Shown: in pieces, positions 1,555 through 62,073 of the stretch
How the letters are laid out: each line of letters opens with the position of its first letter
Position numbering within the stretch: the first letter of the stretch is position 1
Notes under the pieces: model-generated
Databases searched by the model: none
What the model saw: only the letters and a program-made list of their open reading frames with translations
What the model was told of the DNA's origin: nothing
DNA from: Mastigias papua
Lineage: Eukaryota; Cnidaria; Scyphozoa; Rhizostomeae; Mastigiidae
Assembly (NCBI GenBank): GCA_964019165.1
Contig: OZ025275.1
Location: 13,363,374 to 13,427,373, forward strand
DNA: 64,000 nucleotides
Direction of reading: 5' to 3'
Made by a program: the position numbers and the translations under genes

Positions 1555-1561
1555 GCTGGAA

Positions 1562-4500
1562 TTGGCCACTGACGACATCGGTTTGAAAGTAGACAAATTA
1601 AACCCAGAGGATTATTTCCATTGGAAATTCCAGAAGGAAATTAGCCTTTGCAGTAAGGATCTCTGGGATATTGTAGATGGAACTGAAACTTTGCCTGGCG
1701 GTGCTAACGATGATAGTGTAGAAAATTCAAAAACTTAAAAAACCTTTCCTTGGCATTGATATGTTTATCTGTGATGTCCAATTTGCAAATTTATGTGAGC
1801 TTGGCAGAAACGGCGAAGGAAGCTTGGGATAACTTGAAAAGACATTTCGAGAAGAAATCCCTGTTTCAAAAGATATATTAGAGGAGAGAATGTTACGCCG
1901 CCCAAATGGAGAAGGGAACGAAAATGATTAACCACATAAATTGCATAAAGACGCTTGCGGAGCATATTGAAGGAGTGGGAGATACTTTGGCTGAGAATGA
2001 TTTAGTGATTATTCTTATGAGTAGTTTACCTGAAGAATATGATTTTTTAATTACGGAACTTGAAACAATTCTAGAAGATTTGCTGACTTGGGGTTTTGTG
2101 CGTGATAGACTAATCTATGGGTATAAAAAGATGCAACGTGGAAGTGCTGGCATTGTAGAAAGTGTTCAAACCCCCAAGACGTACTGCTAAGTCAGAAATT
2201 CACACACCATAAGAAACCATTCGGAGAGAAGAGGTTCAAATGTTATTATTGTGAGAAGACAGAACATTTTGTGAAAAACTGCTATAAAAAAGAAAGCAGA
2301 GGTCATAAAGCTTCAAGATCAAAAACTGCAAACAAAGTTGGAAGTATTGAAAACGAGGATGTAGAAAATCCTGAAATTGCACTGGTTGTAAGTGATAACT
2401 CGTTTGTATGCAAAGAATAACGGATTGATTCAGGGGCTTCTCAGCACATGATACCCAAGAAGAAAGAATTGTACAATTATAGTACAGTTGAAGATCCACT
2501 CAAAAAAAAGCTTGCTGATACCAGTACATTACTGGCACATGGGAAAGCCAGTTCATGTATAATAGTCTATAATGGCACAGAAAAGATCAGTTTAGTCCTC
2601 ACTGATGTTTTATATGTCCCAGAACTGCAAAATATATTATTACCTTTGCCAACAATAATAGAGAAAGGGGTAACCGTACAACTTAAGGGACAGGTCTGTG
2701 AATTGATGATTAACGACAAACGTTATTGTATAGGACATAAGCATGGAAAATTATACAAACTTACATGTGAACCGATACAAGAATCTTGTTTTGAATCATA
2801 TATAGATGGTGTGAATTCTTTGATGCTATGGCACTGTCGTTTTGGACATCTGCCGTTTGATAGCTTCAAACTCCTGGATGAAAATCCATTGTTGATGGTA
2901 TCAAATTCATTGTGAAAGAAGAAGTAAGTCGTGATTGCGAAGGATGTGCAAAAGGAAAAATGCACCTTATGCCATTTCCAAGAAGAAGCCAACATAGAAG
3001 ATATGAAATATTGTGACTCATCCATTCTGATGTGTGGGTCTATTCATGCGACATCACTGGGAGGATCAAGCTACTTCCTAACTTATATTGATAATTTTTG
3101 AGATTTGCCTCTAAAGACGAAAAGTCAATTGCTTGAGAAATTTAAAGAATTCGTGACTTCAGTTGAAAATCAAACAGGGAAGAGAATAAGACACTCAAAT
3201 CCGACAATGGCGGTGAGTACAAGTCTGCAGGATTTATTCACTATTGCAACTCTCGTGGCATAAAGGAGGAATTTACTGTTCCTATAACTCTTGAACAGAA
3301 CGATGTTTCGGAGAGATTGAACAGGACCATTATGGATACAGCGCGTTCAATGCTATACCATGGACAATTGCCATTAAGTTTCCGGGGAGAGGCAGTTTCC
3401 ACATCTGTCTGCTTGAGAAATTTGAGTCCCACTGTGTCGATCGATGGAATGACTCCATATGAGCGTTGGTATGACCAAAAACCAAATGTCAACCATTTAA
3501 GAGTATTCGATTGCAATGCATACGTGTATCTCCCTGATCAAAAGCACAAGAAGCTAGAGGGAAAGTCCTAGTTGGCTGCAAATGGAGCTTCAGATTGGCT
3601 GCAAATGGATCTTCAACTTGAAAAGGAACACTGACAATAGCATCAGTCGATACAAAGCAAGATTGGTTGCTCAAAGGCACACTCAAGAGGCAGGACTTGA
3701 CTACGATGGTGTGTTTGCACCTGTGGCACGATATACGTTTACAAGATCAGTGCTAGCCTTTTCAAATGCATTAGATTTAGAACTTCACCAAATGGATGTT
3801 TAGACGGTCTTTTTAAATGGCGAACTCAACAGCGAAATTTACATGAAGCATTCAGACGGGTATGTAGACAGACGAAGACCAGATATAGTATGCCAGTTGC
3901 AGAAAATCATTTATGAACTAAAGCAATCAGGGAGATGCCGGCATTTGTCCATTGATCAATGTTTGAAAACGCCATGTTACACACGTTGATAACAGTTTTT
4001 CGTAAGCTAAAGGGTCTATCCAGTTTAAATATTCGAAATTATTATTATTATTATTATTTACGCACAGAGTGATGCAGATCCTTGCATTTATTCAAAGTCG
4101 GGTGAGTCAAAATTAATGATTATTGCTTTATATGTTGGTGATTTATTGTTAGCTTCAAATGACATTAACTTCTCGGGAAATGAAAAGAAGGCTCTTCGAA
4201 GAAAATTTGAGATGGAAGATCAAATGGAAGCAGGTTATTGCCTTGGAATACAAACAAGCTTGAGCGAGGAAAGAAGATATTAAGCATAAATCAGAGGTCG
4301 TATTTAGAAACTATGCCGAAAAGGTTCGAAATGACCGATTGTAAACCTGTCGCAACGCCACTTGAACAAGGTAAGAAGTACCAGAAACTTTCCGATGGAT
4401 CACAACCTGTGAAAATCAAAGAGTATCAAGCTGTCATTGGAAGTTTAACGCACGCTGCTCTAGCAACAAGAGCTGATTTATGCTCAGCCGTGGGAGCACT

Positions 4501-5040
4501 TAGTCAATTTATGTTGAATCCAAGTTCATTACGTTACGTTAAAGGAACTCTTGACTATGGATTAAAGTTTGAGGCTTCTAGTTCAAATAGCTGACAACTT
4601 CGAGGTTGCTCTGATGCCGTCTAGGCAGGAGATATCTCCAATAGGAAATCAACTTCGGGTTACCTATTTCAATTTAGAGGTGGAATTGTATCGTAAAGAA
4701 GTAAGCGACAAAATATTGTGTTATCTTCAACAGAGGCAGAATGCCTAGCTTTAACGCTAGCCTCACAAGAAGCAATATGGCTTAGAAGATTGTTATCAAG
4801 TATCAGATTTAGCAATCAGTAGCTATTCATTTATACGAAGACAATCAAGGAGCTATTGAATTGTCAAAAATCAACTCATCGTGTGCGTTCGATACAAGTA
4901 GACATAAAATATCATTTCATCCGTGAAGCTGTGGAGAGAAAAAAAGTTAACACTGTATATTGGCCATCGAATACAATGATTGCTGATATTCTCGCGAAAG
5001 GACTTGCAAAGCAAAGATTTTAAGAATTCCGTAGGAAGAT
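1562..5040 (+). pseudogene. copia gag-pol, multiply broken
   Basis: Domains in order. UBN2-type gag, about 1570-2190 (KLNPEDYFHWKFQKEI; LPEEYDFLITELETIL). A zinc knuckle C-x2-C-x4-H-x4-C at 2241-2282. An aspartic protease DSGAS motif at 2427-2441, just after an in-frame TAA. A GAG-pre-integrase motif LWHCRFGHLPFDSF near 2825. Integrase with SDNGGEYKSAGF near 3198 (in the original frame) and SERLNRTIMDTARSML near 3310. Reverse transcriptase from about 3600 (KWIFNLKRNTD; ARLVAQRHTQEAGLDYDGVF). The catalytic box at 4131 reads YVGD instead of the usual YVDD. RNase H ends with STEAECLALTLASQEAIWLR near 4730 and ADILAKGLAKQRF near 4983. Many stops and frame changes; non-functional. Confidence 0.92.
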
Positions 5041-5090: not shown

Positions 5091-5331
5091 TGTTAAGAAT
5101 TATGATTATAATGAAGATATGACTCCTGTTTACATTTAATCCCAATGACATTTATCTGCGTGGGTAATATCACGTGACTAAATTCACTGTTGGTTTGTTT
5201 TGTTACAACGTGACGGTTAGTTCGGATCTACTGATTCACGTTTTCATATTGCGATTGCTATGTTATGTAGCTATGTTATGTTAGTATAGATCTGCTATTT
5301 TGCTTTGTTCTTTTCTACTAAACTTCTAATA
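5091..5331 (+). repeat. copia 3' LTR
   Basis: Begins TGTTAAGAATTATG like the 5' LTR and ends before CAGCATGGGC, where the interrupted gene resumes. It differs from the 5' LTR by many substitutions, by having a single CGTGAC unit, and by a local duplication of 'gctatgttatgta', so the insertion is not recent. Confidence 0.9.
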
Positions 5332-5939
5332 CAGCATGGGCAAAAGAGTTCAGCGGAAGAGTTGAGGATGATCCTTTGAACAATTTAGAAATATATTCCA
5401 ATCTCTTGGTTTTTCCAAAGTGTATCAATGAACATGGAATGCTGTTTGAGACAGATCCTAGCATGAGGATAGTATCTTCAACCTTCGAAATAATTTACAA
5501 CGAGCGAGCGTAGCTGTTAGAAAACGATAATGTTTTGTGTTCGGTTCACTGGACTGAATAGCACACTTATTGATCTAAGTATTGCTTTACTAAAACTCAT
5601 TAAAATTATTATCTAGATTTCGATTTTTGCCCTTTTGACAACTACAGTAATTATCATTTACGATTTTGCTCCAGATTTTAAGTCATTTTAATTTTAATAC
5701 ATTCATAACATTGATTTACTGTATAATCTTAGCCTCAGTATTTACCATAATTCATACTATTTAGTGAGATTTACAACTTTAGACATTTGTCTGATTTCAT
5801 TTCATTCATTTTCATTTTTAATTCTTCACTCACAGTTCTTTGGGGCTTCCACTCATATCTACTCGATATAGCAAACTTTCTGTTTATTGAGATCCTCGTT
5901 ACTTAGGCACTGAGCAGAACATTGCCTCTGCACAAATTC

Positions 5940-8147: not shown

Positions 8148-8153
8148 TTTATT
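8148..8153 (-). terminator. Poly(A) signal AATAAA of the secreted-peptide gene
   Basis: AATAAA on the minus strand, about 92 bases after the stop codon at 8245, in an AT-rich context. Confidence 0.65.
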
Positions 8154-8244
8154 ATCAGCAAAATGCTAGCTTGAGACTACAAGACAGTATGTCCACTTGC
8201 TTGAAAGTGAGCAGTCCTCTGCGCTTCTTGGAGTGCTTTCTACA

Positions 8245-9481
8245 TTATCCGGAGCGCCTTCTTCTGTATCCGGAACGTCTTCTTGCGGGGCCAGATCGTC
8301 TTCTTGCGGGGCCAGATCGTCTTCTACGGTAACCAGATCGCCTTCTTGCATTCGGATTTACGCCTGAGGAAGAAGATAAATAGCAACAACTCTGTGTAGG
8401 GATTGCACTTCTCGATTGCAGTTAAATGTCACATGCAATATAAAATTGTTCCATCTCAAGAAATCATATGGCCATCCAGAAAGCCATCTAATACTCTGCT
8501 TAGCACGTAAAATTCTAATTTATAAGTATTCTTTCAGAGTAAGAAAAATTCTGAACTAAAAAGATCTCTCATTTTGCATACAACATAAAATCTTGATACC
8601 GAGCTTGCAGCACTTAAAGTAATGTAGCAAGCAATAAGGAAGTGCTTTCTTTGAGATTCGAAAATGCCATTCATTTGTTTAAGTATACAGTTCTAGAATG
8701 TTACCAATAGCTCTTCAGCATATAAATTTAAGCAGACCTTGGCTTCTAGGATCATGAATCTCTTCAAGCGCAACTTCATCAATTGGGTCATCATCGCTAG
8801 TCATCTCGTAGTCTTCGTCTTCATCCTCATTAAGATCTCTTTCCGTGAAGCCATCTTCTCCTTCCTCTGCATTCTCAGGTACTGCAGCCCTTGGATCAGA
8901 GGTGTCAGCTAAAAGGAGAGGTACATAGCGCAAAAGAATTACAATACATCGATCCGAACATACAGTGAAAGTAAAGAAAATTGAAATATCAAATTTTCAC
9001 TTTATCAGCCTACCAGTACATGCCCATTGAATAAGTCTTAGCAGATTTTACATCGAATTTTTAAACGAGAGTTAGTAAAATATGGGATTCTGGCCTTCTG
9101 ATTTGTCCATATGGCAGAAGATTCCCAAATTGGGGATCGCACTATCAGCCAATCAAGATTTGAGTCCTATGCGTTAGCATCCCAATACATGCCCATTGAA
9201 TTGGCTCTCCAGCCTCTAACAAACCCAGCAAGTTATGGGATATGAGTTACGGTATTTGAGAAGAAACTGAAGTTGATACAATTGTAGCTTGATGATGTAT
9301 GCGTGTTTTGGAATATGTAATCATAATAATTTGAACAGCCATGATGTAATCTTGCATTGAAATAAGGTGATAGTAATGCTTAAAAAGACATGTAGAACAT
9401 ACCTTCTAGATTTTTGGCAATTGCCTGGTGCGACCAGATTGCACAAAGGCCAACTAACAAAAGCAGCAGTTTGGTATTCAT
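8245..9481 (-). CDS. Secreted precursor: acidic propiece plus Arg-rich RRSG-repeat tail
   Basis: Three coding exons on the minus strand: 9481-9403, 8908-8738 and 8363-8245. All junctions are GT-AG and both introns are phase 1, giving 122 residues. Residues 1-22 are a classic signal peptide (MNTKLLLLLVGLCAIWSHQA, then IA), with likely cleavage after AIA. Residues 27-83 are a propiece with 24 Asp/Glu and only 3 Arg (for example ERDLNEDEDEDYEMTSDDDP). Residues 84-122 carry 17 Arg and no acidic residue, in repeats such as RRSGYRRRRSG and RRSGPAR. Each part has its own exon. An upstream non-coding exon, TATA box and poly(A) signal complete the gene. The plan (signal, anionic spacer, cationic C-terminus) is that of antimicrobial-peptide precursors such as Hydra arminins, but the tail sequence is unfamiliar. 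Alternatives: a mineral or matrix-binding basic protein, or a hormone precursor cut at RRRR sites. Function is inferred. Confidence 0.85.
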
Positions 9482-9497
9482 GATTTTAGACGCCTTC
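9403..9497 (-). other. Exon 2 of the secreted-peptide gene (start codon exon)
   Basis: The acceptor 'tttgtcttttcag' is at 9500-9498. The exon carries 16 bases of leader, an ATG at 9481 in a good context (A at -3), the signal peptide, and a donor GTATGT at 9402. Confidence 0.85.
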
Positions 9498-9654
9498 CTG
9501 AAAAGACAAATGATAGCAGCCGTTATACACAATAAATATTATTTAGAAACGAAGTAGTTCATAGTAGTTTCATCGCCGCTTATCATAACTAATGCCTAAT
9601 ACCAAAGATGAATTTTAGAATGTCCCCAGTATGTCAGCCTGATGAGTAACTCAC

Positions 9655-9685
9655 CTTTCCTCACTGCTGTCTAGTCCACGAATAA
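9655..9685 (-). other. Non-coding exon 1 of the secreted-peptide gene
   Basis: On the minus strand a strong donor (GGAAAG|GTGAGT, GT at 9654-9653) sits about 55 bases after the TATA box. The transcription start is placed about 30 bases downstream of TATA, near 9685; it is an estimate. Confidence 0.6.
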
Positions 9686-9707
9686 ATCAGGTTGGACATG
9701 GGAGCGC

Positions 9708-9715
9708 CTTTTATA
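9708..9715 (-). promoter_or_regulatory. TATA box of the secreted-peptide gene
   Basis: TATAAAAG followed by GCGC on the minus strand, correctly spaced ahead of the leader exon. A strong TATA promoter fits a highly expressed, tissue-specific secreted product. Confidence 0.7.
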
Positions 9716-15768: not shown

Positions 15769-16860
15769 TCATTTTATTATAAATTTCCTTGTATTGTCAT
15801 CAAAACCAAATTCCTTCATCACGTCCAGGAAAGAAGTCGACGATCTGTTCATAACACCGATTTCTCCCATGGATAGATTCAAGAAAAAGACTTCCTTATA
15901 TTGAGACTTAAGGTCTATTAGCAACTTTCGGTACCTTTGCTCCTTTCCGATCGAGTTAGGGGAAAAGTTGGACTCGTAACCAATAGTCAGTTCGGAAACG
16001 TAAAGAGAATTTGAAGGCAAAAGTAATATGAGATCAGGTCTGACATCATCTGCTGAAATTATGGATAGACTGAGATAGCCAGGAAGATCAGAAAATAGTT
16101 TGATACCCTGTGCAGCTTTGAAAAACTGAGTAATGTATTGTAGAATAGAGTCGTGACGCCATGTAAAGCGTCCATGATCGAGGTAGCTCTTACAGCCTGC
16201 GACGATGGGAAGAAGGGTTTCAGGATGTAAGCAAAAAGAGCACTCTGATGTTGGACTGATACCCCATTTAGCAAGATGTTTTCTGGTTAGAAGTAAATTA
16301 TTCATATATCGAAAAGTACAATTGGAAATGTTTTTAGACATTTTGTTTTGCACTGTTGACCATATACAGCTTAAGCTTAAAAGAGATTGGTCCATTAAAA
16401 GTGAAAAGAGGGAGCATTGAGAAACAACATGGTTTTGGAGCTTTATCTTCATGAGCTATTCGGAAGGCTTTTAAGACACCATTATAATGTTGATATGTGT
16501 CATATTGGAGCTAGTACACTTCCAAATGTCTCTTGCGTCATGGTTTGTGGAAGATTTAAGAGAGTTTCTTAAAACTTCTCGATGTTGTGTGAATTTTGCT
16601 GAAGCTGAATGTTCAAGTCAAACTTTGTTTTGGAAAGAACGATGTTACTGAGAGTAGCACTTATAGGGAGTTCTAGCCATTGGCGTATATATCTGGAAAC
16701 CATGGTATCAAGATTCTCACAGACCCAAGTTTTCGAGAGGTTCGTTAGCTTGAAATGCCTAGATATTTTTGCGAGGGCATATCTTTGATAGGGGAGAAAT
16801 CTTTTAGAGATGCATTGGCAGCTCATCAATATCTGACATAAACGACTCTAAAGCGTCAAC
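15769..16860 (-). mobile_element. 5'-truncated non-LTR retrotransposon with restriction-like endonuclease tail
   Basis: Minus strand, two frames. 16829-16569 resembles a reverse-transcriptase thumb (LSKTWVCENLDTMVSRYIRQ, WLELPISATLSNI). 16452-15769 is open for 227 codons and holds a degenerate zinc knuckle (CSFCLHPETLLPIVAGC, His position lost), then GRFTWRHDSILQYI, then RPDLILLLPSNSLYVSELTI. The PD...E-L-T pattern is the restriction-like endonuclease of R2/NeSL-type elements. RT catalytic motifs are absent, so it is truncated upstream and frameshifted. The exact clade is an inference. Confidence 0.75.
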
Positions 16861-17143: not shown

Positions 17144-19440
<2,297 letters not shown>

Positions 19441-25950: not shown

Positions 25951-26159
25951 TTTTATGGCGGTAACCGCGCGTGTAGAACTGTGAACCAGTCACATGATCA
26001 ATGTAAACCAATGATAAAGCTTGTCCGTAAGTGAACAATACTCTGTCTATAAGTGATGTGTAAGCCGTGAAAACGGCCTTTTTGCGACAATTGGCTGTTC
26101 CAAAAGTTTGCTAAAGTTCTACACTCTGTGTCTATATTTTGGACGTGTACGGAGCAAAT

Positions 26160-26699
26160 ATGGGTGCAACAAAAGGCAGCACACCATTACTTTTATTACG
26201 AAAGTCTAGAGATCCTGTTTCTGCTGCGAAAGATGTTCTTTGCTGGACAAAAAGGCATGGTATAGCTAATGGGAAAGCGGAGTTGATAGTACAAGAATGG
26301 AAAAGACGTGCGGCAGATGGTTACGACATCATATTTGAACCAACTGAAGACGACCGTATAAGATATACCGTAATCAAAGTACCAGACGGTGTACCGCATC
26401 TTCGCAATGGCCCGCCAACACTTGCATTGCATGCACACGGAGACGGCGAGTTGAAAAAACTTGATGCCACAGCATGGGTAAAGGAATATAGTGGAAGAGG
26501 TGAGAACGATCCTATGAACGAGATGGAAATAGATTCCATCCTCTTGGCTCATAACGAAATGTGTCGTGGATATGGTGCAAATGGAATGATGGTTGAAAGA
26601 GATGCTAACCTGAAGATAGTGTCCTCATCCTTCAAATCTTTTGGTTACGCGATTAGATTAAGCAATGGAAACGATTATCCAACTATAGGGGAGTTTTAA
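26160..26699 (+). CDS. Orphan protein, 179 residues, intact
   Basis: An uninterrupted frame of 180 codons including TAA. The start ATG is supported because the decayed paralogue at 574 keeps the same ATGGGTGCA context, and A at -3 with G at +4 make a good initiator. It begins MGATKGSTPLLLLRKSRDPV. Conserved blocks shared with the paralogue are YTVIKVPDGVPHLRNGPP, KKLDATAWVKEYSGRGENDP and ANLKIVSSSFKSF. There is no signal peptide or membrane segment; composition is soluble and mixed charge. I do not recognise the family and assign no function. No intron is needed. It stands just upstream of NOL11 on the same strand, an order repeated in the duplicate. Divergence that spares protein-level motifs suggests it was under selection. 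Confidence 0.7.
   Translation: MGATKGSTPLLLLRKSRDPVSAAKDVLCWTKRHGIANGKAELIVQEWKRRAADGYDIIFEPTEDDRIRYTVIKVPDGVPHLRNGPPTLALHAHGDGELKKLDATAWVKEYSGRGENDPMNEMEIDSILLAHNEMCRGYGANGMMVERDANLKIVSSSFKSFGYAIRLSNGNDYPTIGEF

Positions 26700-28450: not shown

Positions 28451-49344
<20,894 letters not shown>

Positions 49345-50424: not shown

Positions 50425-62073
<11,649 letters not shown>

What the first reader, a model, noticed from the sequence alone, without database searches (positions are those of the whole stretch)
8148..9715. Complete gene for a candidate new cationic-peptide precursor
A signal peptide, a 57-residue propiece with 24 acidic residues, and a 39-residue tail with 17 Arg are assembled by three phase-consistent exons, with TATA box, leader exon and AATAAA all in place. 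Charge neutralisation of a basic effector by an acidic propiece is known from antimicrobial precursors such as Hydra arminins. The RRSG(Y/PA) repeat tail is not a family I recognise, so it may be undescribed. A mineral-binding or matrix role is an alternative.
Basis: partly seen in the sequence, partly recalled or inferred. Interest (0 to 1): 0.88.

Follow-up and report, generated by a model that had tools for sequence, protein, structure and literature searches.

The report
Charge-caged polyarginine peptide of a jellyfish
A gene in a jellyfish-type genome encodes a small protein, likely secreted, whose acidic middle would mask a five-repeat arginine tail; the tail is 36 of 37 residues identical in a second sequence although most of the acidic part differs, and the peptide is predicted to act, once freed, on negatively charged targets such as microbes.

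Summary
The minus-strand exons join into one 122-residue frame: predicted signal peptide (cut after AIA), acidic propiece (24 D/E of 57) and a 39-residue tail with 17 Arg and no acid. Neither charge block arises in 100 Markov sequences. A protein from another source (P0002, JGI, 118 aa, uninterrupted) supports the splice frame: signal peptide 14/22 identical, propiece 16/54, tail 36/37, same order of repeat units. Only this locus matched in the 347 Mb host genome. The mitochondrial contig, read by eye, has the ancestral medusozoan gene order, so the host is a jellyfish-type cnidarian. Pfam, NCBIfam and PDB gave no relative. I read it as an arminin-like, charge-bipartite precursor whose effector is a hydrophilic RRRSG-heptad polycation, not an amphipathic lytic peptide; the acidic half would silence it until processing and amidation. 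Secretion, release and antimicrobial action are inferred. Arminin membership is not met (few aliphatic residues, one locus). Rivals: an uncleaved acid/base matrix protein, or a multi-copy signal-peptide precursor.

The parts
9709..9715 (-). TATAAAA box
   Evidence: sequence match; activity inferred
9655..9685 (-). non-coding leader exon (5' end predicted about 30 nt after the TATA box), donor AAG|GTGAGT
   Evidence: start predicted
9403..9497 (-). exon 2: ATG at 9481, predicted signal peptide residues 1-22 (AIA|K), 26 residues plus 1 base
   Evidence: signal peptide 14/22 identical to P0002, score reached by 0 of 2000 shuffles
8738..8908 (-). exon 3: acidic propiece, residues 27-83, 24 D/E; phase-1 introns on both sides
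   Evidence: also predicted as ORF P0001; acid count above all 100 Markov sequences
8148..8363 (-). exon 4: Arg-rich tail, stop TAA 8247-8245, 3' UTR with AATAAA 8153-8148 (true 3' end lies some bases further)
8248..8346 (-). array of five units (four of 21 bp, the last 15 bp) encoding RRRSGYR RRRSGPA RRRSGPA RRRSGYR RRRSG
   Evidence: order and number identical in P0002
8245..9481 (-). whole coding region (spliced, 122 aa)

Best explanation
The gene encodes a predicted precursor in which an acidic propiece (net charge -21) would likely silence a +17 arginine tail of RRRSG heptads until secretion and processing free it, and the freed tail is predicted to act as a polycation on negatively charged targets, most likely microbial surfaces at the animal's epithelia or mucus. 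Shown: the open spliced frame, the charge split, exon borders close to the module borders, and a tail that stayed fixed between two sequences while the propiece changed sequence but kept its charge. Inferred: signal-peptide cleavage after residue 22; removal of the propiece by the acid-site (D/E) processing described for cnidarian preprohormones, since no dibasic site precedes the tail; C-terminal amidation at the final Gly; binding by many weak ionic and hydrogen-bond contacts of a disordered chain, without a membrane-inserting helix.
For: Frame and charge blocks, beyond Markov expectation. Homologue P0002 keeps signal peptide and tail (14/22 and 36/37) but only 16/54 of the propiece (8 further gap columns), while propiece net charge is -21 and -23, tail +17 in both, whole proprotein -4 and -6: charge more than sequence of the propiece is kept. 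Propiece alignment score is reached by 20 of 2000 shuffles (35 of 2000 if only residues from 30 on are used), signal peptide by 0 of 2000. Repeat number and order YR-PA-PA-YR identical in both. Inside this gene's five RRRSG cores, 27 of 50 codon comparisons differ and none changes the residue. Both proteins end in Gly. Layout matches arminin-like precursors and periculin (PMC12013895, PMC10945409 and PMC11767717 passages). AlphaFold2 of P0002 alone: helix only at 3-36, blocks after residue 20 at pLDDT 52-63, consistent with disorder but a single-sequence model.
Against: No expression, peptide or activity data. Tail has only 14% FWYILVMA residues, unlike typical membrane-active AMPs (recalled). 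No dibasic site between propiece and tail in either protein, so release is unproven. R-X-[RK]-R type sites at 2 places inside each tail could let convertases cut it up. One locus here, whereas Hydra AMP genes come in paralogue families. An exactly fixed tail is less usual for immune effectors, which tend to change fast (recalled). The conservation case rests on two sequences, the second from an unnamed source.
Confidence: 0.42

Rival explanations
1. Uncleaved acid/base block protein: the two halves pair within and between chains and condense into a secreted matrix, mucus, capsule or mineral-binding coacervate, like a silaffin precursor in layout.
For: Near-neutral net charge of the whole proprotein in both sequences, -4 and -6; no dibasic cleavage site before the tail; the fixed repeat number suits a structural spacing role; diatom Sil1p has signal peptide, acidic domain 20-107, then basic repeats (PMC4557024 passages).
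Against: The propiece differs at most positions while the tail does not, which suits a disposable propiece better; no Lys in the tail for silaffin-type modification; silica is not known from jellyfish (recalled).
Confidence: 0.28
2. Multi-copy peptide-hormone precursor: convertases cut at RRR/RRRR and release SGY and SGPA peptides.
For: RR and RRR are processing sites in scyphozoan preprohormones (PMC6909153 passages); repeats separated by Arg runs; R-X-[RK]-R sites at 2 places in each tail.
Against: No GR or GK site in the 122-aa sequence, the hallmark used for cnidarian neuropeptides; products would be 3-4 residues without N-terminal pQ or X-P protection; the Arg residues are as fixed as the spacers.
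Confidence: 0.12
3. Nucleic-acid or polyglutamate packing protein of a secretory organelle, for example a counter-ion of the nematocyst matrix.
For: Arg-only, Lys-free tail; nematocysts hold poly-gamma-glutamate (recalled).
Against: No Cys-rich minicollagen-type domain: the protein has one Cys, inside the predicted signal peptide; no expression data.
Confidence: 0.1

Closest known systems
Hydra arminins and Trichoplax arminin-like precursors
   Same: Signal peptide, strongly acidic N-terminal part, basic C-terminal part, C-terminal Gly for amidation (passages). Lack of Cys in the basic part is recalled for arminins and seen here.
   Different: Basic part there includes aliphatic residues and is described as alpha-helical; here it is RRRSG heptads with 14% FWYILVMA. 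Arminins are stated to be confined to Hydra, with 9 and 12 paralogues in two species (passages); here one locus.
Myticalins (mussel)
   Same: Linear, Arg-rich, lacking Cys (abstract start); non-coding exon 1 and a phase-1 second intron (PMC12294457 passages).
   Different: Order reversed: cationic part first, acidic C-terminal extension after a dibasic site; three exons rather than four; many genes; known from mussels and, as modiocalins, Modiolus.
Silaffin precursor Sil1p (diatom)
   Same: Signal peptide, acidic domain, then strongly basic repeats (passages).
   Different: Lys-rich modified repeats cut at RXL; different kingdom and mineral.
Scyphozoan neuropeptide preprohormones
   Same: Peptides flanked in some families by RR/RRR; acidic residues used in processing (passages).
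   Different: No GR/GK sites, no pQ or X-P protected repeats here (sequence).

Membership tests
Arminin / arminin-like | signal peptide and highly acidic N-terminal region | tested here: met
   signal peptide judged by its AXA site and hydrophobic core, no SignalP run
[quoted passage not shown]
   tail basic but FWYILVMA fraction 0.14 in both proteins, its few members being mainly Ala and Tyr
Arminin / arminin-like | C-terminal glycine for amidation | tested here: met
   both proteins end RRRRSG
Arminin / arminin-like | several paralogues | tested here: not met
   only this locus among scored candidates in the genome
Arminin / arminin-like | sequence homology to a Hydra arminin | not tested
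   no arminin sequence was fetched; arminins stated to be confined to Hydra
Arminin / arminin-like | antimicrobial activity | not testable with these tools
   bench assay needed
Cnidarian neuropeptide preprohormone | three or more similar peptides followed by GR/GK processing sites | tested here: not met
   no GR or GK in the 122-aa protein (sequence); criterion
Myticalin | cationic peptide first, dibasic site, acidic C-terminal extension | tested here: not met
   order is acidic then cationic; no dibasic site before the tail
Any Pfam or NCBIfam family | score above the curated cut-off | tested here: not met
   this protein: 2 Pfam hits, at most 11.9 bits against a cut-off of 22.3, NCBIfam none; P0002: 3 Pfam hits, at most 14.2 against 31.5, 2 NCBIfam hits, at most 12.5 against 759

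The most novel reading that the evidence does not exclude
An undescribed medusozoan effector family: a secreted, charge-caged polyarginine peptide made of a frozen five-unit RRRSG heptad array (YR-PA-PA-YR), whose exact length and order are held by selection while its acidic cage is free to drift as long as it keeps its charge. It would be a peptide that acts through a fixed Arg-heptad register rather than through an amphipathic helix or a disulphide fold.
Probability: 0.5. Interest if true: 0.7.

Novelty: new variant of a known kind. Interest (0 to 1): 0.52.

Why it matters
Jellyfish immune and matrix peptides are poorly known; the review passages read here name one jellyfish AMP, six-Cys aurelin. 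A conserved, Cys-free polyarginine precursor would add a chemically distinct class. The contrast between fixed tail and drifting propiece makes charge caging directly testable with synthetic peptides. The constancy of a 21-bp repeat array, which could slip in number, asks what needs exactly five units.

Tried and rejected
Prokaryotic or viral origin: no relative in IMG/VR (79 pattern stretches, none confirmed) or GTDB genome contigs (594 stretches, none confirmed). Known family: Pfam and NCBIfam gave nothing above cut-off; PDB sequences gave nothing up to E 1 for the window's protein. More relatives: three searches of 5.77 billion proteins returned no others than P0001 (the window's own exon-3 ORF) and P0002 (tail only, returned P0002 alone); each scored only about 8000 candidates sharing most words, so distant relatives may be missed. 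Chance ORF: rejected. In print: the strings RRRSGPARRR, RRSGYRRR, RRSGPARRRSG are in none of 5.39 million open papers. Topic searches listed no paper that I recognised from title or abstract start as this family; I saw 2 of 2, 15 of 138, 10 of 274, 15 of 74, 12 of 41, 12 of 4602 and 9 of 9 papers, listings only except for passages of PMC12294457, PMC10945409, PMC6909153, PMC11767717, PMC4557024 and PMC12013895 (and of PMC3519871, from one search). GFP as an anthozoan marker was uninformative, since no control genome rang. Window Rfam scan: 0 matches at gathering score. Genome size in papers: none. AF2 of P0002 was too low in confidence for a fold search. Pfam on 10 window ORFs (one of them, at 45230) gave no hit above cut-off. 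The mitochondrial polB reading rests on motifs seen by eye; Pfam gave 0 families for that ORF.

A DNA-level search of the host genome for degenerate copies of the gene and a genome count of the side ORF at 26115 did not complete. An 18S rRNA search did not complete.

Full report
Observation. Exon 2 (9497-9403) starts the frame at 9481; exon 3 (8908-8738) is the acidic part; exon 4 (8363-8148) holds the Arg tail, the stop at 8247-8245 and AATAAA at 8153-8148. Both coding introns are phase 1, so the acidic exon is a symmetric 1-1 module. The protein is 122 residues. Residues 1-22 look like a signal peptide ending AIA. Residues 27-83 hold 24 D/E. Residues 84-122 hold 17 Arg, no Lys and no acid. 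From residue 86 the tail reads NPNA then RRRSGYR, RRRSGPA, RRRSGPA, RRRSGYR, RRRSG and stop.

More than chance. In 100 first-order Markov sequences made from the window's dinucleotides, no open 37-residue stretch had more than 11 Arg (observed 17) and no 57-residue stretch more than 13 D/E (observed 24). tblastn found no credible second copy in the window (hits other than the gene's own exons have E of 1.5 or more, apart from shifted or weak self-matches inside the gene).

A second sequence. A search of 5.77 billion proteins returned P0002 (JGI source, 118 aa, contig of 1723 bases, E 3.9e-24) and P0001, the window's own exon-3 ORF. P0002 runs from signal peptide to tail without interruption, so it is either transcript-derived or intronless; which one, and from what animal, could not be checked. 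It matches the spliced product across both predicted coding junctions. By segment: signal peptide 14 of 22 identical, propiece 16 of 54 with 8 gap columns, tail from NPN on 36 of 37. The signal-peptide score is reached by 0 of 2000 shuffles, the propiece score by 20 of 2000, so the propiece is related largely, though not only, through composition. Net charges stay put: propiece -21 and -23, tail +17 and +17, proprotein -4 and -6. A 21-bp tandem array could be expected to vary in copy number; number and order of units are the same in both. Within this gene the five RRRSG cores differ in 27 of 50 codon comparisons without one residue change; the five units are not independent, and two of them are identical in DNA, so this is supporting evidence only.

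Host. The window lies at C12:13363374-13427373 of a 346.8 Mb assembly of 172 contigs. COX1 on contig C172 has 5 in-frame TGA. C172 is 16455 bases; read by eye from its translated frames it carries a probable polB-like ORF and cox1 on the minus strand, then on the plus strand cox2, atp8, atp6, cox3, nad2, nad5, nad6, nad3, nad4L, nad1, nad4 and cob, and it has inverted repeats near both ends (244-355 with 16337-16448). The rRNA genes were not looked for. ARAGORN found two tRNAs, Met and one with anticodon tca, which it labels SeC and which I read as Trp under the mitochondrial code. Linearity with inverted terminal repeats, two clusters of opposite polarity, only trnM and trnW, and a polB ORF are the features listed for the ancestral medusozoan order, found in discomedusan Scyphozoa, Staurozoa and trachyline Hydrozoa (PMC3519871, abstract and passages); that the gene order itself is the same is recalled. 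Pfam did not confirm polB. The host is therefore most likely a medusozoan; class and species remain open.

Copy number. Searching the genome with this protein gave three matches at E up to 0.001, all exons of this gene; searching with P0002 at E up to 1 gave only the tail exon of this gene. Only the best candidates are scored there. A DNA-level search for degenerate copies did not complete.

Mechanism. A propiece that keeps charge more than sequence, in front of a fixed polycation, fits charge caging: the acid half likely keeps the tail inactive and soluble in the secretory path. No dibasic site precedes the tail in either protein, so release would need the D/E-site processing described for cnidarian preprohormones, which is said to stop at X-Pro (PMC6909153 passages). 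The conserved block starts at N-P-N, which fits; but in this species a Gln (residue 83) lies before it, where such trimming would also stop, so the fit is exact only for P0002. Both proteins end in Gly, as needed for amidation. With 14% FWYILVMA residues, the tail is unlikely to insert into membranes as helical AMPs do; binding to anionic surfaces, nucleic acid or mucus is the more likely mode. All steps after translation are inferred.

Comparison. In layout it works like arminins and the arminin-like Trichoplax precursors, but fails two features tested here, aliphatic tail and paralogue family. It is the mirror of myticalins. Sil1p of diatoms has the same order of parts, which keeps the matrix rival alive. 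The neuropeptide criterion is not met. I rate it a new variant of the charge-bipartite precursor kind.

Noticed in passing
window about 1556-5020 (+): Broken Ty1/copia-like element: Pol_BBD and gag_pre-integrase hits in one ORF, SH3_retrovirus in another, spread over several interrupted frames. Described only.
   Followed up: partly
window 26115-26699 (+) and 5322-5510 (+): Two copies of an unnamed protein family, 26/56 identical; no Pfam hit for the longer one. Probably a dispersed repeat or gene family; genome count not answered.
   Followed up: partly
G000 contig C121 (L005, L006): Five matches to COX1 (three long ones with equal scores), one TGA in each of the four longer ones, distinct from the host COX1. 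Only L005 was translated; by recall it looks alveolate (dinoflagellate or apicomplexan), so the assembly may hold an algal symbiont or parasite.
   Followed up: partly
window 15772-16455 (-): ORF with a weak reverse-transcriptase zinc-binding hit below Pfam's cut-off, likely a retroelement remnant.
   Followed up: no
window 17145-17303, 31158-31268, 51823-52041: Long TA/AT dinucleotide arrays.
   Followed up: no
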